This document shows, one piece after another, positions 1-33,963 of a DNA stretch of 64,000 nt (its first letter is position 1; the number at the start of each line of letters is the position of its first letter). The translations under genes and the position numbers were made by a program. The stretch is from the NCBI GenBank assembly GCA_947477885.1, contig CANJUD010000001.1, positions 296,632 to 360,631 on the forward strand, in the 5' to 3' direction. Origin of the DNA: Bacteroidota bacterium (GTDB taxonomy: Bacteria > Bacteroidota > Bacteroidia > UKL13-3). A model generated the notes under the pieces. The model was not told the origin of the DNA, ran no database searches, and saw only the letters and a program-made list of their open reading frames with translations.

Positions 1-62
1 TTTCTAAAAATTTAAATATAATTATTTATGATATTAAATAAACTTGGTTTGTAATTCAATAA

Positions 63-1364
63 TTGAAATTAAAAAAAATAAAAAAGGTGCTTACAAAAAA
101 ATTTAAATTCATAGATTTATTTGCAGGACTTGGTGGTTTTCATATTGCGTTGCATGATTTAGGACATACATGTGTATTTGCCAGTGAAATAAATGAAGAC
201 TTGCGAGAATTGTATAAAGTTAACCATGGGGTTAAATGTAGTGGCGATATTAATGCAATCGAAGTTGAAAATATACCTAAGCATGACATAATTTGTGCGG
301 GGTTCCCTTGTCAACCGTTTTCAAAAGCTGGAAAGCAAAATGGGCTGGAAGATGTAACTAATGGTAATTTCTTTAACAGAATTATGGAAATAGCAGACCT
401 GCATAAACCAGAGTACATATTTTTAGAAAATGTTCCAAACCTGAAAGGGCATGATGATGGAAATACTTGGAATTATATCCATAAAAAGTTATCTGTTAAA
501 TATGAAGTTGCGGAAAAAGTTATGTCTCCTCATACATTTGGAGTTCCACAACATCGGTCAAGAATATATATAGTTTGCAGATTAAGATCAAAAGGTGGCT
601 TAAAGGATTTTGCATTTCCTGAGGGAGATTACAATGGAAAACTATCCATCAAATCTATAATAGAAAAAAAGCCAAAAGAGTATACAGCCATTAAGCCAGA
701 TTCCTTAAATCATATAAAAGTATGGCAAGAATTTTTAGATCATTTACAACCAGCAGAGGTGCCAAGATTCCCGATTTGGGCCATGGAATTTGGAGCGACC
801 TATCCTTATGAGGATTTAGCTCCTATCCAACTATCTGCGGATAATCTTAAAAAATTTAAAGGAAAATTCGGACAAAAAATTAAAGGCCATTCTTTTGATG
901 AAATATTGGAATGCCTACCTATATATTCGCAGATAGACCAAAAAGAATTTCCACATTGGAAAAAATATTATATTAGAGCTAATAGAGAATTTTATCTAAA
1001 ACATAAAAAATGGCTAGACAATTGGATTCCGAAAATTCTTGATTTCGAAAACAGTCACCAAAAATTCGAATGGAATTGCGGTAATAAAATTCCGTTGGAA
1101 ATTAATGACAAGATTTTGCAATTCAGACCTTCGGGCATTAGGGTAAAGATGCCAGATTTTTCCCCAGCCTTAGTTTTAACATCAACTCAAATCCCAATAT
1201 TCCCTTGGCTGGGTAGATATATGACACCAAGAGAAGCCTCGAAATTACAGTGTATGGATGGACTCAAAGAATTGCCAAGTACAACGGCAAAGGCATTCCG
1301 TGCATTTGGCAATGCAGTCAATGTTTGTGTTGTTAAGAACATTGCTAAAAATTTATTGAAATAA
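63..1364 (+). CDS. DNA (cytosine-5-)-methyltransferase of a restriction-modification operon
   Basis: Transfers a methyl group from S-adenosylmethionine to cytosine C5 and presumably marks host DNA as self. All hallmark C5-methylase motifs are visible: SAM-binding FAGLGG at residues 20-25, catalytic PCQPFS with Cys83, ENV near 121, QHRSR near 165, and a C-terminal FGNAV motif near residue 417. The target-recognition segment lies between the last two. Length 433 fits a stand-alone Dcm-type enzyme. An in-frame TAA at 60-62 closes the frame, so translation must begin at TTG 63 or GTG 87; no ATG precedes motif I. First of five closely spaced same-strand genes; the next starts 5 nt downstream. Family is certain; target sequence is unknown. 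Confidence 0.95.
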   Translation: MKLKKIKKVLTKKFKFIDLFAGLGGFHIALHDLGHTCVFASEINEDLRELYKVNHGVKCSGDINAIEVENIPKHDIICAGFPCQPFSKAGKQNGLEDVTNGNFFNRIMEIADLHKPEYIFLENVPNLKGHDDGNTWNYIHKKLSVKYEVAEKVMSPHTFGVPQHRSRIYIVCRLRSKGGLKDFAFPEGDYNGKLSIKSIIEKKPKEYTAIKPDSLNHIKVWQEFLDHLQPAEVPRFPIWAMEFGATYPYEDLAPIQLSADNLKKFKGKFGQKIKGHSFDEILECLPIYSQIDQKEFPHWKKYYIRANREFYLKHKKWLDNWIPKILDFENSHQKFEWNCGNKIPLEINDKILQFRPSGIRVKMPDFSPALVLTSTQIPIFPWLGRYMTPREASKLQCMDGLKELPSTTAKAFRAFGNAVNVCVVKNIAKNLLK

Positions 1365-1369
1365 ATACC

Positions 1370-2905
1370 ATGGAAAAAATAAATACAATATCAATAAAAT
1401 TCAAGCCCGATTTTTATGGTCAATTTGAAAACTTTAGCAATAAGGTCTGGAATGTCATTGGCGAGTATGTTGATAATGCTTGGCAAAGCTATGATAGTAA
1501 TAAATCATTGCTGAAAAAGGCTCATAATGGAAAATACACATTAGAGGTTTACATTACTCTTGATAAAGAAAATGATCTAATTACAATCTCTGATAATGCG
1601 GCAGGTATAGATTATATAAATATCGTTCGTGCTTTAGAAGTAGCAAATACGCATTCAGATGTAAGTGGGTTAAATGAGTTTGGGATGGGGTTGAAGACTT
1701 CCTCAAATTGGCTTTCAAAATCATGGAACTTAAGAACGAAATCATTGGGCGAAAAAATAGAACGATATGTAGAGTTTGATCTAAAAAATGTAAAGGAAAA
1801 TAAATTAGAAGAATTACCAATAACGAGTAAAACTGCTGATGTTAATTCGCATTACACTATTATAACACTTACTAAACTTACTAAAAATGCACCATCAATC
1901 TATCAACTAGATAAAATCAAAAAACACCTAGCAAGTATATATAGAAAGTTCATTCGAAAGGGTGAAATGAAACTATATATTAATGACGAACTATTAATTT
2001 ATGATGAGCCAGAAATTTTAAAAGCCCCTTTTTATACCGAACCCAATGGCAAACCAATTGAATGGAAAAAAGAGATTAATTTTTCATCAGGAATTTATAA
2101 AGTAAAGGGCTTTATTGGATTATTAAATACAATGAGTACAAGCGAAGTAAATGGATTATCTTTATTTCGTAGAGGAAGGGTAATAGAGGGAAGCTACGAT
2201 GAAAAGTATAGGCCGAAAGTTCTTTGTGGGCAAGCAGGTTCTCCAAGACACAAAAGGATTTTTGGCGAATTGGAATTAGAAGGATTCTCTGTAAGTTTTA
2301 ATAAAGGTAGTTTTCAAGAGCAAGAAGATTTAGAGGCTTTAATGGAGGCACTTCATTCAGAAATTTCTGCAAAAGATTTTGATCTTTATACTCAAGCTGA
2401 AAAATATACACTGCCAAAAACACAAGAAAATAACAAACAGGTTGCTAAGAAAATTATAAGCAATTTGAAGAAATCAAAAAAAGAGTTCAATTTAAAGGCT
2501 AATGTCGAAGTATCTCTTAAAGAGATTAACAGTAAAAATATAGCTACGCTGAATGACCGAATATTAAAAAAAGCAATAGCAATTGAATCATATGAGGATT
2601 TTTTTGAATTTGACAATGAAAAGTACAAACTTAAATTAGAACTTATTACAGAACCAAATTTACCCGTTTTGTATTCTATGGAGCAAGAAGAAGATGAATT
2701 ATTTACAAAGAAAATATTATATAGAATAAATCTTGCCCACCCCTTTTTCATGCGTTTTGACCGATTCAAAAAAGATGGCGATTACCAGCCGATTATTTCT
2801 ATTATCCGTTCATTAGTCCTGGCTGAACTAAAAGCTCCCTCACAAGGAACCAAAAATGCTGGAAATGTCAGAATCAATTTTAATCATTTCCTAAGAAATA
2901 TTTAA
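1370..2905 (+). CDS. MORC/MutL-like GHKL ATPase of the restriction operon
   Basis: A GHKL-fold ATPase (HATPase_c_3 type) related to Hsp90, MutL and MORC. The Bergerat ATP site is complete: N-box E32..D35-N36, the G1 motif D75-x3-G79, and GMGLK at residues 105-109. Family knowledge says such domains dimerise on ATP and clamp DNA. Prokaryotic MORC-like ATPases are known from predicted restriction operons beside a C5 methylase and a Z1 ATPase, as here. The C-terminal half (about 260-511) has no motif I recognise. ATG at 1370 follows the methylase stop by 5 nt, and the next gene starts 3 nt after the stop. Probable role: ATP-driven DNA sensing or loading in restriction (inference). Confidence 0.88.
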   Translation: MEKINTISIKFKPDFYGQFENFSNKVWNVIGEYVDNAWQSYDSNKSLLKKAHNGKYTLEVYITLDKENDLITISDNAAGIDYINIVRALEVANTHSDVSGLNEFGMGLKTSSNWLSKSWNLRTKSLGEKIERYVEFDLKNVKENKLEELPITSKTADVNSHYTIITLTKLTKNAPSIYQLDKIKKHLASIYRKFIRKGEMKLYINDELLIYDEPEILKAPFYTEPNGKPIEWKKEINFSSGIYKVKGFIGLLNTMSTSEVNGLSLFRRGRVIEGSYDEKYRPKVLCGQAGSPRHKRIFGELELEGFSVSFNKGSFQEQEDLEALMEALHSEISAKDFDLYTQAEKYTLPKTQENNKQVAKKIISNLKKSKKEFNLKANVEVSLKEINSKNIATLNDRILKKAIAIESYEDFFEFDNEKYKLKLELITEPNLPVLYSMEQEEDELFTKKILYRINLAHPFFMRFDRFKKDGDYQPIISIIRSLVLAELKAPSQGTKNAGNVRINFNHFLRNI

Positions 2906-2908
2906 CTT

Positions 2909-5086
2909 ATGAGTGAAACTATAAAAATAATTCAACCAACAGTTCCAAATTTTCCAATCGTTGAAGGTCTAAGAACAAGGGATTTAATCAGTCGCTTGAC
3001 GAAGCTAGATTCTGAAGAAATAGATAACTTAAAAAATGAAACAACAGCCATCCTTTCACAATGTGTGAACCCTGTAAATACTGTCGGTAGCACAACTGGG
3101 ATTGCAATTGGTTATGTGCAGAGTGGTAAAACAATGTCATTTACTACATTAACTGCCCTAGCCCTTGACAATGGTTTTCGGATTGTAATTTATTTTGCGG
3201 GTATAAAAGTGAATTTATTAGAGCAGACTACAAAGCGCTTAAAGAAGGACTTGCATACTGAAGGTGATAATGCTAGATTTTTCAAGGTTTACCAAAGCCC
3301 AACTATGGCAGATAATGTTCATGGTAAAATTCAAAGTGCATTACAGTTGAAGCATAAGCCAGCTATTTTAATAACTGTGTTAAAGCACTACAAGCATATA
3401 GATGAACTTACTAAAATATTTAACACGCCAGAAGTAAGGGAAGAATTAGGAAACAATGGTGTTTTAATAATTGATGATGAAGCAGACCAAGCCAGTTTAA
3501 ATACTTACGCTAGAAAAAATAGTAAATCAGAGGATTGGGAGGATGATGAATTTAGTTCTACATATTCCAGTATATTAAAATTAAGAGCCACACTTTCTAA
3601 CCATTCGTATATCCAATACACAGCAACTCCTCAAGGTCCTTTATTAATAAATATTATGGATTTGCTATCCCCCAAATTTCATGTAGTATTAACTCCAGGG
3701 AAATCATACACTGGAGGAAAAACATTTTTTGAGGAAAATACAGATTTAATTTTCACAATACCGGATGCTGAGGTTTATCATCACAAACACAACCAACTAA
3801 GTGATTGCCCTCAAAGCTTAATCGATGCTTTGCAATTGTTTCTAATAGGTGTGGCTATTACTGTAAATATTGAACAAAAGGAAAATTTCCTTTCTATGAT
3901 GATTCATGCAGATAGGGAGCAAGATGCAAGTAAGCAGTTTTATGATTGGGTGAAAAAGCTGAGGGGAAGCTGGGCAGAAAGACTAAATTTACCTGATACA
4001 GACCCTAGTAAAATGGAACTTGTAAAAGAACTAAGAGAGAACTATATTGAAGCAATTCGAAGGATGGATAGCCCCCCAGACTTTGAATTAGTAATTGAGG
4101 AAGTGTTACAAGTAATTCTAGATACTAATATGGAATTAGTAATTCAAGGTTCAAAAGAAATCGACTGGAGCAACGCATCTTCGCATATTTTAGTTGGTGC
4201 TGATATGCTCAATAGAGGTTATACAGTTGAAGGTTTAACGGTATCCTATATGCCACGATACAGCATTGGAAAATCTAATGCTGATACTATACAGCAACGA
4301 TGTAGGTTTTTTGGTTATAAACTAAATTATTTTGAAAATTGCAGGGTGTTTCTTCCAAATGACTCTATTATTGAGTACAGAGACTATGTACAGCACGAAG
4401 AAATCATGAGAACAATGCTAAAAGAAAACACACTTAATCAACTAGAGCAACTGTTAATTCTAAGTCCAGAAATGAATCCAACAAGAAATAATATTTTATC
4501 TAAGGATGTTATACAACATAAGTTATCTGGATGGAGACAGATGAATGCTTTGCAACATATAGAATCAAATATTATATATGTTGAGGGATTTATTTCAAAA
4601 CAAAATTTTATCAATTACAATGACTATAAGACCCCAGCAAGAAATCATCGATATGTTAAGCTCGATATTACTAAGGTGATTGAGTTCTTAAAAGATTTCA
4701 AAATTATGAACATGCCTGATGCATTGCGTAAATCCTCCACTATTCAATATTTAAGATATCTAGCAGACAAGAAACATCTTAATTATGCGTACATTTTTGA
4801 GATGGGATATAATTACAAAGTCGAAGATAAAAAAGGTACTGAATTACTAAGAGATAATGGAGCAATAAAATTGAATAACATATTTGCCGGTCCATCAAAC
4901 TCTGGAACCACGCCATATCCAGGGGATAGAAGAATACGTTTTGAAGATTCAATTTGTATTCAACTGCATCACATTAAAATTAAAGATGATTCATCATCAA
5001 TTTTGTGGGGAAACAAAAAACTTTATACACTTGGTATTTATTACCCTGAAGATTTTGCTCATTCATTTGTGGGAATAGATAGTTAA
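2909..5086 (+). CDS. Z1 domain-containing superfamily-II helicase-like ATPase
   Basis: A 725-residue helicase-like protein. The Walker A motif GYVQSGKT lies near residue 70, the Walker B variant IIDDEAD near 190, a motif III-like YTATPQG near 238, and a motif VI-like QQRCRFFGY near 470. The helicase core with the degenerate second lobe followed by a conserved segment (roughly 400-620) matches the Z1 superfamily known from MORC-type restriction operons. It likely translocates on, or remodels, unmodified or invading DNA to license cleavage by the nuclease encoded next (inference). It sits third in the operon, 3 nt after the GHKL ATPase gene and 1 nt before the nuclease gene, so coupled translation is likely. 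Confidence 0.88.
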   Translation: MSETIKIIQPTVPNFPIVEGLRTRDLISRLTKLDSEEIDNLKNETTAILSQCVNPVNTVGSTTGIAIGYVQSGKTMSFTTLTALALDNGFRIVIYFAGIKVNLLEQTTKRLKKDLHTEGDNARFFKVYQSPTMADNVHGKIQSALQLKHKPAILITVLKHYKHIDELTKIFNTPEVREELGNNGVLIIDDEADQASLNTYARKNSKSEDWEDDEFSSTYSSILKLRATLSNHSYIQYTATPQGPLLINIMDLLSPKFHVVLTPGKSYTGGKTFFEENTDLIFTIPDAEVYHHKHNQLSDCPQSLIDALQLFLIGVAITVNIEQKENFLSMMIHADREQDASKQFYDWVKKLRGSWAERLNLPDTDPSKMELVKELRENYIEAIRRMDSPPDFELVIEEVLQVILDTNMELVIQGSKEIDWSNASSHILVGADMLNRGYTVEGLTVSYMPRYSIGKSNADTIQQRCRFFGYKLNYFENCRVFLPNDSIIEYRDYVQHEEIMRTMLKENTLNQLEQLLILSPEMNPTRNNILSKDVIQHKLSGWRQMNALQHIESNIIYVEGFISKQNFINYNDYKTPARNHRYVKLDITKVIEFLKDFKIMNMPDALRKSSTIQYLRYLADKKHLNYAYIFEMGYNYKVEDKKGTELLRDNGAIKLNNIFAGPSNSGTTPYPGDRRIRFEDSICIQLHHIKIKDDSSSILWGNKKLYTLGIYYPEDFAHSFVGIDS

Positions 5087-5087
5087 T

Positions 5088-6071
5088 ATGCAGTCAATGT
5101 TTAACATATTTCAAGAACTAAAAAAAACTTCATCAGCCCATGCTGATAGTTATAATATTGCGGCATTACCATTCATTAAGAATCATAAAATTGGTATATC
5201 TCAGAATGAATACCCGATTTTCTTTATTAAGTGTGAGGATTCGGAAAATGTAAAATCGATTGATTGTAATCTAGAATTTATATCAGTTCAATTCAATCGT
5301 TCTTGCCAACTTAATAATAAAAAGAAAGTTGAGGAAGGCATTTATACAATTATCTCATTAAAGACAGGTTCCGCTGACCTTCAAGAATATTTTTTGGAAG
5401 TTGTTTATTTAGTAGTTAAAAAACTTTCACAGACGCCAAATCATAAGGAACTAAAAATTGAGGTTGAAAAGTTGATTAATCTATTTAGCAAATTTTCACA
5501 GCCTCCTGTTAAAACTATACAGGGACTATGGGCAGAGCTATTAGTTATTGAACAGTCTGCCGATATTGACTATATGATACAAGCATGGCACATTTCTACT
5601 ACAGATAAATTTGATTTTAATGATGGAAAAGATAAGATTGAAGTTAAAAGCACTACAAAAAGCAGAAGAATTCATAGTTTTTCTATTGAGCAACTTAATC
5701 CAAATAAGAATTCCTTGTTAATTATTGCATCTGTTTTTGCTATTGAAACAGGAGTAGGTAAAAATATTTTTGGATTAGTTGATTTAATCGAGAAAAAATT
5801 AATGGATAAGAATTTAAGTTTTCGCATTAATGAAATTATTGCTCAAACTCTAGGTAAAGACTTTGAAAAATCTTTTGATGTATTTTATGATTATCAACTA
5901 GCAATTGATTCGATTGCATATTTTGACAGTATGGATATCCCGTCATTAAATTCAAAGGATATCCCAGAAGAAATAAGTAATGTGCGGTTTGATAGTGATC
6001 TAAGCAATATTCAGAATATTATTAAATGTAAAAACGAGTCAACTCTTCATAACTCATTATTTCAAAAATAA
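5088..6071 (+). CDS. PD-(D/E)XK motif nuclease (DUF4420-like)
   Basis: Probable restriction nuclease of the operon. The catalytic core is readable: an acidic Asp176 in KFDF followed by IEVKS with Glu185 and Lys187, preceded by a helix containing GLWAELLVIE (about 149-158) that supplies the usual upstream Glu. This arrangement and the 327-residue length match the PD-(D/E)XK family labelled DUF4420, which co-occurs with Z1 ATPases. The first 120 residues are beta-rich and may form an accessory or DNA-binding domain. The start ATG is 1 nt after the Z1 stop; gene 5 starts 9 nt downstream. Cleavage specificity and dependence on the two ATPases cannot be told from sequence. Confidence 0.82.
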   Translation: MQSMFNIFQELKKTSSAHADSYNIAALPFIKNHKIGISQNEYPIFFIKCEDSENVKSIDCNLEFISVQFNRSCQLNNKKKVEEGIYTIISLKTGSADLQEYFLEVVYLVVKKLSQTPNHKELKIEVEKLINLFSKFSQPPVKTIQGLWAELLVIEQSADIDYMIQAWHISTTDKFDFNDGKDKIEVKSTTKSRRIHSFSIEQLNPNKNSLLIIASVFAIETGVGKNIFGLVDLIEKKLMDKNLSFRINEIIAQTLGKDFEKSFDVFYDYQLAIDSIAYFDSMDIPSLNSKDIPEEISNVRFDSDLSNIQNIIKCKNESTLHNSLFQK

Positions 6072-6080
6072 AACATTTGT

Positions 6081-6806
6081 ATGGGAAAAGTATTAGCAAA
6101 GGAACTCAAAATAAAGTTCATTGAAATTTTAAGTGACCTAGAGAATTTTAGTTACGAAGAAGGCAATCCTTTTTTAATAAAAATTAAGACTAAGCAATAT
6201 TATATATTTTTAAAGAATCTATCTCCTGCTTATTTCAAAAACTCGCCTGACATAACTAGAGTTCAATTACCATATAGTCCACATTTTTCTAAAATTTTTA
6301 AAGCGGCAATTCCTTTTATTATCCTTGGGTATGATGTAGATAATGATACTGTTGTCTGCTGGAATCCTAAAAAGGTCAAAGAAAGATTAAACGCCAAAAG
6401 CAACGTTTCATTGTATTCTCGTGAATCGTTGCAAACAAAAGTAGGACTGAATGAATTCAAAGTTGGTTACCTTTCAAATGGTGAAAAAATAATAACATTT
6501 AAACGTGAGACATTGATTAGTTTTTTTGATAATGTTTCTACACTTTTTAGAGAAAAAAAAGAACAAATTGACGATAATGAAATAAGTGTTGTAAAAGAAC
6601 CTATTGTGGAATTTGTTTCTGATAAGCTAGTTGAATTGACAGATAGATTTCTATTACAGGAAATAAAACCTTTATTAAAAAAGAACAAGGTTCTCCAAGC
6701 TGTTGAGGTTTGTATTAAGTTTTACAAGGGAAAGTATAAAGGAATGTCTATTAAAGATTGGTTTAACCTTGTAAACAAACAATATCAAAAAGTCAATAAT
6801 ACATAA
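6081..6806 (+). CDS. Unrecognised fifth protein of the MORC/Z1 restriction operon
   Basis: I do not recognise a family. The 241-residue protein has no signal peptide or membrane segment, so it is probably cytosolic. Residues about 15-130 read as a compact alpha/beta domain with a central strand pair ending in ILGYD and CWNP, then a segment rich in Asn, Ser and Arg. Residues 160-241 are helical and charged, ending in a lysine-rich tail (KGKYKGMSIKDW). It is 9 nt behind the nuclease gene in the same orientation and equally AT-rich, so it belongs to the operon. It could be a specificity or DNA-reading subunit, a second nuclease or a regulator; none is shown. Confidence 0.75.
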   Translation: MGKVLAKELKIKFIEILSDLENFSYEEGNPFLIKIKTKQYYIFLKNLSPAYFKNSPDITRVQLPYSPHFSKIFKAAIPFIILGYDVDNDTVVCWNPKKVKERLNAKSNVSLYSRESLQTKVGLNEFKVGYLSNGEKIITFKRETLISFFDNVSTLFREKKEQIDDNEISVVKEPIVEFVSDKLVELTDRFLLQEIKPLLKKNKVLQAVEVCIKFYKGKYKGMSIKDWFNLVNKQYQKVNNT

Positions 6807-6838: not shown

Positions 6839-7342
6839 ATGCATACAATCCGCAAACCCAACCGCCTCCAAGGCTACGATTACGCCACCAATAATCTGTA
6901 TGTTGTAACCTCCTGTGTAGAAGACAGGGTGTGTTGTTTCGGTGAAATAAATAATGGCGAAATGATTTTGAATGAATACGGCACCATCGCCCAACAGCAA
7001 TGGCATTGGCTGGGAGAACAATATTCATATATTATATTACATGCTTTCGTGGTGATGCCGAATCATATTCATGGTATTATTGAAATTAACGGTCCTTCTG
7101 TAGGGGCAGGTCGCGACCTGCCCCTACAGAAGGAATCCATTGTCAAAATAAAATCGTTATCCGAAATTATGGGTGCCTATAAAACAACCACGTCCAAGAA
7201 AATACATTTGTTGGGTTTGCAAGAATTCAGATGGCAACGTTCATTTCACGATCATATTATTCGTGATTTGAATTCGTATGAGAATATTACCAATTATATA
7301 AAAAACAATCCCAAGAAATGGGATGAAGATGATTTGAAATAA
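6839..7342 (+). CDS. REP-associated tyrosine transposase (RAYT, IS200/Y1 family)
   Basis: Single-strand DNA transposase of the Y1 HUH type. The HUH motif is seen in MPNHIHGII (about residues 75-83) and the catalytic tyrosine region in SYENITNYIKNNP near the C-terminus. The N-terminus (RLQGYDYATNNLYVVTSCV) is typical of RAYTs. Family knowledge: RAYTs are domesticated, non-autonomous relatives of IS200 that act on palindromic REP sequences. This gene contains a 42-bp perfect palindrome in its own coding region (7093-7134), translated as GAGRDLPLQKE and nearby residues. No IS ends are visible. It lies between the defence operon and the lytic transglycosylase gene, with a terminator directly after it. 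Confidence 0.9.
   Translation: MHTIRKPNRLQGYDYATNNLYVVTSCVEDRVCCFGEINNGEMILNEYGTIAQQQWHWLGEQYSYIILHAFVVMPNHIHGIIEINGPSVGAGRDLPLQKESIVKIKSLSEIMGAYKTTTSKKIHLLGLQEFRWQRSFHDHIIRDLNSYENITNYIKNNPKKWDEDDLK
7093..7134. repeat. 42-bp perfect palindrome inside the RAYT gene
   Basis: Two 21-bp arms meet at TCGCGA with no loop. The core of one arm reads GTAGGGGCAGGTCG. It is much more GC-rich than the surrounding gene and looks like an inserted REP-type repeat. The reading frame stays open through it. I see no second copy in the window. Confidence 0.85.
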
Positions 7343-33759: not shown

Positions 33760-33963
33760 GTATTCTATACATACACTACCGTATTCCATACCTTCACGCT
33801 TATATTCCGAGCAAGTATACCTGTATTCCATACCATCACACCCATATTCCAAGCAATCACTACCACATTCCACACCTTCACACTTATATTCCGAGCAAGC
33901 ACACCTGTATTCCATACCATCACATCTATATTCCAAGCATACACTATCGTATTCCATACCTTT
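33760..33963. repeat. 42-bp tandem array with 21-bp half period
   Basis: A 21-bp half unit (33760-33780) is followed by four 42-bp units (33781, 33823, 33865, 33907) and a partial unit. Alternating halves carry GTATTCCATACC and ATATTCC-GAGCAAG / CCAAGCAA cores. Because 42 is divisible by three, both strands stay open; the translated repeats are LYSIPSHLYSEQ-like (+) and GMEYRC-CLEYR-like (-). Confidence 0.85.

What the first reader, a model, noticed from the sequence alone, without database searches (positions are those of the whole stretch)
63..6806. Five-gene MORC/Z1-type restriction operon
C5 methylase, MORC/MutL-like GHKL ATPase, Z1 ATPase and PD-(D/E)XK nuclease are packed with gaps of 5, 3, 1 and 9 nt. 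Iyer, Abhiman and Aravind (2008) predicted such restriction-modification systems, and their mechanism, with two ATPases feeding one nuclease, is little described. All catalytic motifs of the four known parts are intact here.
Basis: partly seen in the sequence, partly recalled or inferred. Interest (0 to 1): 0.75.

Follow-up and report, generated by a model that had tools for sequence, protein, structure and literature searches.

The report
MORC–Z1 restriction-modification operon
This is a compact bacterial DNA-defence operon of a kind predicted in 2008; its four core genes travel together between distant bacteria, its methylase seems tied to one DNA target, and its fifth protein looks like a dead nuclease that may read DNA.

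Summary
They encode a C5-cytosine methylase (M), MORC-family GHKL ATPase, SF2 helicase with Z1 domain, DUF4420 PD-(D/E)XK nuclease (NRE), and MTaX1, a named Pfam family, so the fifth gene is not wholly unknown. The operon fits the third MORC operon type of Iyer et al. 2008. It is a cousin of the phage-defence system MZA, not a member.

New here:
(1) Of 80 genome loci kept from 383 MORC relatives, Z1 follows in 80, M precedes in 76, DUF4420 follows Z1 in 69 (8 more end at contig edges), MTaX1 follows in 33. MTaX1 marks nearly one clade.
(2) The methylase's target-recognition region stays alike in the 83 full-length M compared (minimum 29% identity); in 21 other C5 methylases of related genomes it falls to 5%. 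This suggests one shared target. Two loci have other methylases instead.
(3) MTaX1 is predicted to have a PD-(D/E)XK-like fold without the usual conserved catalytic acids.

Most likely function: ATP-dependent restriction-modification. The clamp and translocase roles are inferred from MutL/MORC and CglI. Nothing was tested experimentally.

The parts
63..1364 (+). C5-cytosine DNA methylase (M), 433 aa, TTG start (a GTG eight codons later is possible)
   Evidence: PF00145 215.6 bits; closest solved relative M.HhaI, but only residues 12-188 and 385-431 align, not the region between; PCQ and ENV in 83 of 83 family members
632..1216 (+). Target-recognition region of M (aa 191-384)
   Evidence: Minimum pairwise identity 29% over 3403 pairs in the cassette family, against 5% over 210 pairs of other C5 methylases
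1370..2905 (+). MORC-family GHKL ATPase, 511 aa
   Evidence: PF13589 46.2 bits; ATP-binding motifs; MORC motif at 2153-2185, matched in 85 of 93 relatives and in 9 of 1860 shuffles
2909..5086 (+). SF2 helicase-like ATPase with Z1 domain, 725 aa
   Evidence: PF10593 119 bits; Walker A 3110-3133, motif DTIQQRCRFFG 4283-4315; pattern DT..Q.[GASC]R.FG in 81 of 85 relatives
5088..6071 (+). DUF4420 nuclease (NRE), 327 aa: N-terminal beta-rich domain plus PD-(D/E)XK domain
   Evidence: PF14390 118 bits; E150 50 of 50, D176 50 of 50, E185 47 of 50 plus 3 D, K187 50 of 50; model pLDDT 93.7; aa 140-313 align to NhoI at Z 6.8
6081..6806 (+). MTaX1 protein, 241 aa; MTaX1 domain at 6192-6527
   Evidence: PF20296 74.3 bits; model pLDDT 89.9; best structural matches RecU, I-Ssp6803I and Hjc at Z 8.6-7.8; R60 and Q62 in 32 of 32

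Best explanation
An ATP-dependent restriction-modification system. M puts 5-methylcytosine on a short site that is probably the same across the whole cassette family (inferred from conserved recognition region). On unmethylated invading DNA the restriction complex binds the site. Recognition most likely lies in the core proteins, NRE's N-terminal domain or M, because about half of the cassettes lack MTaX1. Where present, MTaX1, a nuclease-like fold without the usual catalytic acids, acts as an extra reader of the site or its methylation. The Z1 ATPase then moves the complex along DNA, as the Z1-type ATPase of CglI does. MORC dimerises with ATP as a clamp or looping device that holds DNA and couples complexes, as Iyer et al. 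proposed from MutL and topoisomerases. NRE cuts when complexes meet. Shown here: gene content, order, intact motifs, co-inheritance, conserved recognition region. Inferred: every biochemical step.
For: Intact active sites. Core order M-MORC-Z1-NRE conserved: of 80 loci M 76, Z1 80, NRE 69; also on a Rathayibacter plasmid and in IMG/VR contigs, M 8 of 9, Z1 8 of 9, NRE 8 of 9. The recognition region of M is conserved family-wide, with controls, and M is exchanged between sublineages without leaving the family (L079), as expected if the target is shared. In a class sample, 9 M share the recognition region and 6 of them sit beside MORC, against 0 of 21 other C5 methylases within 1.5 kb. CglI: Z1-domain ATPase, C5 methylase, ATP-driven translocation and cleavage (passages of PMC4267653 and PMC5737866). 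Vsr beside M in two cassettes, L009 and L049, fits stable 5mC. MTaX1 in another context follows an N6/N4 methylase as an MTaX1-HNH fusion (L162).
Against: No experiment. L055 keeps intact MORC, Z1 and NRE without a family M; two unrelated C5 methylases lie downstream. That is odd for a system needing its own M, unless M is itself needed for cutting or lies elsewhere. Three loci (L086, L090, L092) have M, MORC and Z1 but no recognised NRE. MTaX1 is missing from 29 of 80 loci, so it is not essential. The correlation test did not single out NRE as recognition part: Z1 C-terminus did as well. The NRE fold match is weak: no Foldseek hit below E 0.001, best Z 6.8.
Confidence: 0.65

Rival explanations
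1. Abortive-infection system like MZA: the core senses phage DNA and the fifth protein, in the place of AIPR (MzaE), is an effector that stops the cell rather than a DNA reader.
For: Same layout GHKL-Z1-DUF4420-fifth gene in MZA-like loci, where the fifth is AIPR/MzaE (L166, L169, L171). The MTaX1 C-terminal part is fast-evolving and varies in length, 223 to 762 aa.
Against: MTaX1 shows no conserved catalytic set in its fold and is absent from 29 of 80 cassettes. In L162 and L163 it is a domain joined to another nuclease domain, which fits a reader better than an effector.
Confidence: 0.12
2. MORC and Z1 compact or silence foreign DNA, as eukaryotic MORCs do, and cutting by NRE is secondary.
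For: MORC membership by motif; listed abstracts say C. elegans MORC-1 entraps and condenses DNA (PMC8277788). Three cassettes lack a recognised NRE.
Against: NRE's catalytic residues are nearly invariant in 50 of 50 sequences, which argues that cutting is selected.
Confidence: 0.1
3. A methyl-directed repair module (MutL/MutH/Vsr-like) rather than defence.
For: MutL-like ATPase and, in some loci, a Vsr gene.
Against: Sporadic distribution: cassette in 3 of 395 Bacteroidota genomes including the own one; found in viral contigs and plasmids; M is always, or nearly always, included.
Confidence: 0.05

Closest known systems
Third MORC operon type of Iyer, Abhiman and Aravind 2008 (PMC2292703; text parts 1-3 of 4 read)
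   Same: MORC GHKL+S5 ATPase, SF2 helicase with C-terminal DThhQXuRhFG (Z1) domain, new restriction-endonuclease-fold protein with E-D-ExK, often a cytosine methylase; figure legend also names an uncharacterised X1 domain.
   Different: The paper gives no experiment; I saw its figure legend but not the figure, so I cannot say whether this exact five-gene order is drawn there.
MZA (mzaABCDE) and the Z1/DUF4420/C5-methylase putative defence system of Miller et al. 2022 (PMC9523054, section 11 read)
   Same: GHKL ATPase, Z1 protein and DUF4420 in the same order, with a C5 methylase upstream in L166-L169 and L172.
   Different: Scores far below NCBIfam cut-offs: MzaB 17.6 of 850 bits, MzaC 125.9 of 1500, MzaD 32.8 of 420. 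The fifth gene is MTaX1 instead of AIPR; no AIPR in the whole genome.
CglI / NgoAVII (PMC4267653, PMC5737866; passages)
   Same: C5 methylase plus Z1-domain SF2 ATPase; shown to hydrolyse ATP and translocate before cleavage.
   Different: CglI has a PLD-type nuclease with a B3-like domain and no MORC; here the nuclease is DUF4420 PD-(D/E)XK and a MORC is present.
MTaX1 domain proteins of other restriction systems (PMC10853773, one passage)
   Same: Same Pfam family, described there as potentially discriminating modified DNA.
   Different: Fold and loss of catalytic acids are not mentioned in the passage seen; here it is a separate protein at the end of a MORC-Z1 operon.

Membership tests
MORC operon type 3 (Iyer 2008) | GHKL protein with the MORC motif GhXhhpXXRhl in the S5 domain | tested here: met
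   GLSLFRRGRVI at aa 262; pattern in 85 of 93 relatives, 9 of 1860 shuffles. It is not exclusive: 6 of 6 MZA-like GHKL proteins match too.
MORC operon type 3 (Iyer 2008) | SF2 helicase with DThhQXuRhFG in a C-terminal domain | tested here: met
   DTIQQRCRFFG at aa 459; the fourth letter, Q, is not hydrophobic, the rest fits. Looser pattern in 81 of 85.
MORC operon type 3 (Iyer 2008) | Additional protein with E-D-ExK of the restriction-endonuclease fold | tested here: met
   E150, D176, E185-x-K187, nearly invariant in 50 sequences; PF14390.
MZA (mzaABCDE) | MzaB, MzaC and MzaD at NCBIfam cut-offs | tested here: not met
   17.6, 125.9 and 32.8 bits against 850, 1500 and 420.
MZA (mzaABCDE) | AIPR protein (MzaE) | tested here: not met
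   Fifth gene is MTaX1; 0 AIPR matches in the own genome.
CglI-type restriction-modification | R protein with PLD nuclease and B3-like domains | tested here: not met
   No PLD or B3 family among the Pfam matches of the six proteins scanned.
CglI-type restriction-modification | C5 methylase with Z1-domain SF2 ATPase | tested here: met
   PF00145 and PF10593, motifs.
Active PD-(D/E)XK nuclease (MTaX1 protein) | PD-(D/E)XK fold | tested here: inconclusive
   Z 8.6 to RecU-type 1y1o over 125 residues, rmsd 3.2; Foldseek best E 2.2e-4 to SPARDA, TM 0.33. Agreement of the top rows is strong, the scores are middling.
Active PD-(D/E)XK nuclease (MTaX1 protein) | Conserved acids and lysine in strands 2 and 3 | tested here: not met
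   In residues 1-64 no column is 80% acidic; D57 is acidic in 69%; R60 and Q62 are in 32 of 32; D85 and D89 (94% and 88% acidic) lie after the next helix. Mapping onto the fold was by secondary structure only.
Restriction-modification or phage defence by function | Methylation of a site and restriction of unmethylated DNA | not testable with these tools
   Needs methylome and challenge experiments.

The most novel reading that the evidence does not exclude
It would be a bacterial setting in which the basic action of a MORC ATPase, still debated in eukaryotes, can be assayed with defined DNA.
Probability: 0.3. Interest if true: 0.7.

Novelty: new member of a known kind. Interest (0 to 1): 0.45.

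Why it matters
The system type has been predicted since 2008 and I found no experiment on it in the papers searched. If the whole family methylates one target, a single methylome from any member would give the site for all, and that would make restriction, the role of MTaX1 and the action of a bacterial MORC directly testable. A dead nuclease fold as a methylation reader would add a way in which restriction systems acquire recognition parts.

Tried and rejected
NOV_C gene upstream as a sixth member: rejected, no homologue in 95 relative loci, although it lies 55 bases away. MZA membership: rejected on scores and on the fifth gene. PADLOC had no hit for the MORC protein at E up to 1, nor for three other family MORCs at E up to 1e-5 in L097, L101, L092 and L008 (four proteins in all); its best Z1 model is Helicase_II.

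Which part reads the target: pairwise-divergence correlation on 62 loci gave residual correlations with the M recognition region of 0.208 (NRE N-terminus), 0.214 (NRE C-terminus), 0.195 (Z1 C-terminus), each p about 0.001, and -0.065 (MORC C-terminus, p 0.88). It does not separate NRE from Z1; left undecided. I first thought the Z1 C-terminus might be the recognition part because it is replaced between close pairs (L060-L062: 0.95 in the N-part, 0.60 in the C-part; window-L014: 0.91 and 0.62), but M stays constant in these pairs, so this is not supported.

MTaX1 needed for function: rejected, 29 of 80 loci lack it. In the 395-genome sample MTaX1 occurs in 5 genomes, and in the four others (L162-L165) no cassette gene was found; the two other cassettes of that sample (G104, G109) lack MTaX1. 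So MTaX1 is a shared module, not a mark of this system.

Sequence searches of the PDB: no useful match for the Z1 protein or MORC as single sequences, and none for the NRE profile. The MORC profile hits HtpG and MutL weakly. The MTaX1 profile has only chance-level rows. The full Gao 2020 paper is not held.

Bias to keep in mind: the 80 loci are the best of 383 relatives, found with a profile of five cassette MORCs. Two weaker MORC relatives (L012, L013) have no cassette. Six adjacent M shorter than 380 aa were left out of the identity counts (L026, L028, L037, L084, L094, L096). L030 and L055 have no family M at all and do not enter the count of 83. The 21 control methylases are those for which one search gave loci, thus nearest to the window M in the catalytic part.
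Full report
Observation. The five ORFs, their strand and the gaps of 5, 3, 1 and 9 nt are as stated. Pfam gives C5 methylase, GHKL ATPase (HATPase_c_3), Z1, DUF4420 and MTaX1, all above cut-off. All motifs that I looked for are present. The region is AT-rich: GC is 0.296-0.349 over the first 7 kb and 0.405 in the next.

Surroundings. The window is G000:C1:296632-360631. To the left, outside the window, lie a NOV_C-domain ORF ending 55 bases before M, a DUF1016/YhcG nuclease ORF, and an ORF that reads as Rho (Rho named by eye). To the right lies a REP-associated tyrosine transposase-like ORF (57.1 bits, below the NCBIfam cut-off of 80) and then an ORF that I take for a lytic transglycosylase (named by eye). 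In a genome of the same genus, a fetched 16 kb stretch aligns from the transglycosylase rightwards and holds no cassette gene; the rest of that genome was not searched. This fits a variable locus.

Family. The MORC protein matched 5 of 395 Bacteroidota genomes. Three hold the cassette (the own one, G104, G109) and two (L012, L013) hold a distant MORC-like protein without it. Two plasmids hold it: Rathayibacter festucae with the complete core dcm-MORC-Z1-DUF4420, and Hymenobacter with MORC and Z1 in pieces. A scan of one genome per species with a five-MORC profile gave 383 relatives, of which 80 were kept. Of these 80, M is immediately upstream on the same strand in 76 (2 contig edges; 2 exceptions, L030 and L055), Z1 is next in 80, DUF4420 is next after Z1 in 69 (8 contig ends; 3 without: L086, L090, L092), and MTaX1 follows in 33 (32 on the same strand, 1 opposite), is absent in 29 and undecidable in 7. 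Median gaps are -8, 3, -4 and -4 nt. Of 9 viral contigs M is present in 8, Z1 in 8, DUF4420 in 8, MTaX1 in 1. The record titles name Bacteroidota, Ignavibacteriota, Planctomycetota, Acidobacteriota, Chloroflexota, Pseudomonadota and Parcubacteria; many are metagenome bins, where misplaced contigs are possible. Isolates outside Bacteroidota are Devosia, Bradyrhizobium (without DUF4420) and Rathayibacter.

MTaX1 as a clade mark. On a quick maximum-likelihood tree of 93 MORC proteins, 34 MTaX1-bearing rows lie in one set of 40 (support 99), with 4 undecidable and 2 MTaX1-free rows, both on long branches. The label needs 7 changes against a shuffled mean of 27.9, as low in 0 of 500 shuffles. The program warns of long branches. 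In G404 (L133) and L021, MTaX1 lies on the opposite strand. A decayed copy in G538 keeps pieces of M and MTaX1 only.

Methylase target. The part of M between its catalytic halves (aa 191-384) aligns throughout the family. Over 3403 pairs of 83 M proteins, mean identity is 0.45 and the minimum 0.29; for 3279 pairs with catalytic identity of at least 0.45 the median is 0.41. In 21 other C5 methylases of the same class of bacteria, 209 pairs pass the same limit with a median of 0.17, minimum 0.05 and maximum 0.95; in 8 methylases of MZA-like loci the minimum is 0.10 over 28 pairs, although the 6 closest pairs are at 0.53-0.67. Against the window M the other methylases reach at most 0.10 in this part. 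In a class sample of 295 genomes 9 M (own included) share this part. MORC is adjacent in 6; one more ends with its contig, one is a remnant with a stop and one is a lone M with a stop. Of 21 other methylases 0 have MORC within the 1.5 kb flanks. M has also been exchanged within the family: L079 has MORC, Z1 and NRE of the L062/L068 line (85-95% identity) but its closest M is from L076 (71%). The simplest reading is a shared target. The exceptions are L030, where two different C5 methylases and an extra 333-aa ORF precede a divergent MORC, and L055, where MORC, Z1 and NRE are intact, no family M is found, and two unrelated methylases lie downstream.

Nuclease and fifth protein. NRE: model pLDDT 93.7. 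The catalytic E-D-ExK set is nearly invariant in 50 sequences. Structure matches to PD-(D/E)XK enzymes are modest, best Z 6.8 to NhoI over aa 140-313, with no Foldseek match below 0.001. MTaX1: model pLDDT 89.9, pTM 0.66. VIA-align gives RecU-type 1y1o at Z 8.6, then I-Ssp6803I, Hjc and SPARDA nucleases; the first 28 rows are nucleases which, from recall, belong to the PD-(D/E)XK superfamily. Foldseek puts SPARDA first, E 2.2e-4 with a low TM-score of 0.33. The tool warns that Z under 8 may be only a common arrangement; two chains are above 8. In 32 sequences no column of residues 1-64 is 80% acidic; R60 and Q62 are invariant; D85 and D89 are conserved acids further on. I read it as a dead nuclease fold, by secondary structure and not by coordinates, so a rearranged active site using D85 and D89 is not excluded.

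MTaX1 elsewhere. In a 395-genome sample 5 genomes have MTaX1. Of the four others, L162 has an N6/N4 methylase overlapping an MTaX1-HNH fusion, L163 an MTaX1-GmrSD_N fusion, L165 MTaX1 after an Eco57I-type methylase and a SNF2/PLD helicase, and L164 a broken copy in which the one neighbour scanned is a subtilase. A reader module placed beside methylases or joined to nucleases fits the suggestion of modified-DNA discrimination in PMC10853773 (one passage seen).

Comparison with known systems. Iyer et al. 2008 (PMC2292703; parts 1 to 3 of 4 read) describe the third MORC operon type with this helicase motif and a new nuclease with E-D-ExK, and propose DNA looping by MORC. Miller et al. 2022 (PMC9523054, section 11 read) describe a putative defence system of Z1, DUF4420 (printed DUF4220) and a cytosine methylase, one type with AIPR and associated MORC, related to the validated mzaABCDE. 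MZA-like loci in Bacteroidota (L166-L169, L171, L172) have the same order GHKL-Z1-DUF4420 and a further large gene; in the three scanned (L166, L169, L171) that gene is MzaE-like, below the curated cut-off. The window system scores far below the MZA cut-offs. CglI shows what a Z1 ATPase can do: dimerise by Z1, hydrolyse ATP on unmethylated sites, translocate and activate cleavage on collision (passages).

Mechanism and judgement. The restriction-modification reading rests on content, intact active sites and co-inheritance; translocation, clamping and reading are by analogy. In the listings that I saw I found no experiment on a MORC-Z1-DUF4420 cassette (lists capped at 15 to 30 papers, subscription papers missing). 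The finding is a good member of a predicted kind, with two fresh and testable points: the conserved recognition region and the predicted nuclease-like fold of MTaX1.

Noticed in passing
window 7093-7134: A perfect 42-base palindrome (19-pair stem, 4-base loop) lies inside the REP-associated transposase-like ORF 6839-7342; its 22-base core occurs only here in the own genome at up to 2 mismatches.
   Followed up: partly
window 33773-33962: Tandem array of an 84-base unit (2.3 copies, with 42- and 21-base sub-periods) in a stretch with GC skew -0.39, outside the three ORFs of 150 aa or more listed around it.
   Followed up: no
L002:11183-12007 (left of the window; last 7 bases at window 1-7): NOV_C-domain ORF directly upstream of the operon, with a DUF1016/YhcG nuclease ORF before it: a small cluster of nuclease-like genes. 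YhcG-type ORFs also lie near the cassette in L025, L026, L057, L065, L074 and L087.
   Followed up: partly
L055:9932-17358: MORC, Z1 and DUF4420 intact but without a family methylase; two unrelated C5 methylases follow. How the host is protected is unexplained.
   Followed up: partly
L162:9252-11160: Two-gene unit of an N6/N4 methylase and an MTaX1-HNH fusion, which looks like a minimal restriction-modification pair.
   Followed up: no
L063:6527-8530, L074: A primase-like DUF3987/PriCT_2 ORF lies just upstream of the cassette, suggesting carriage on a mobile element.
   Followed up: no
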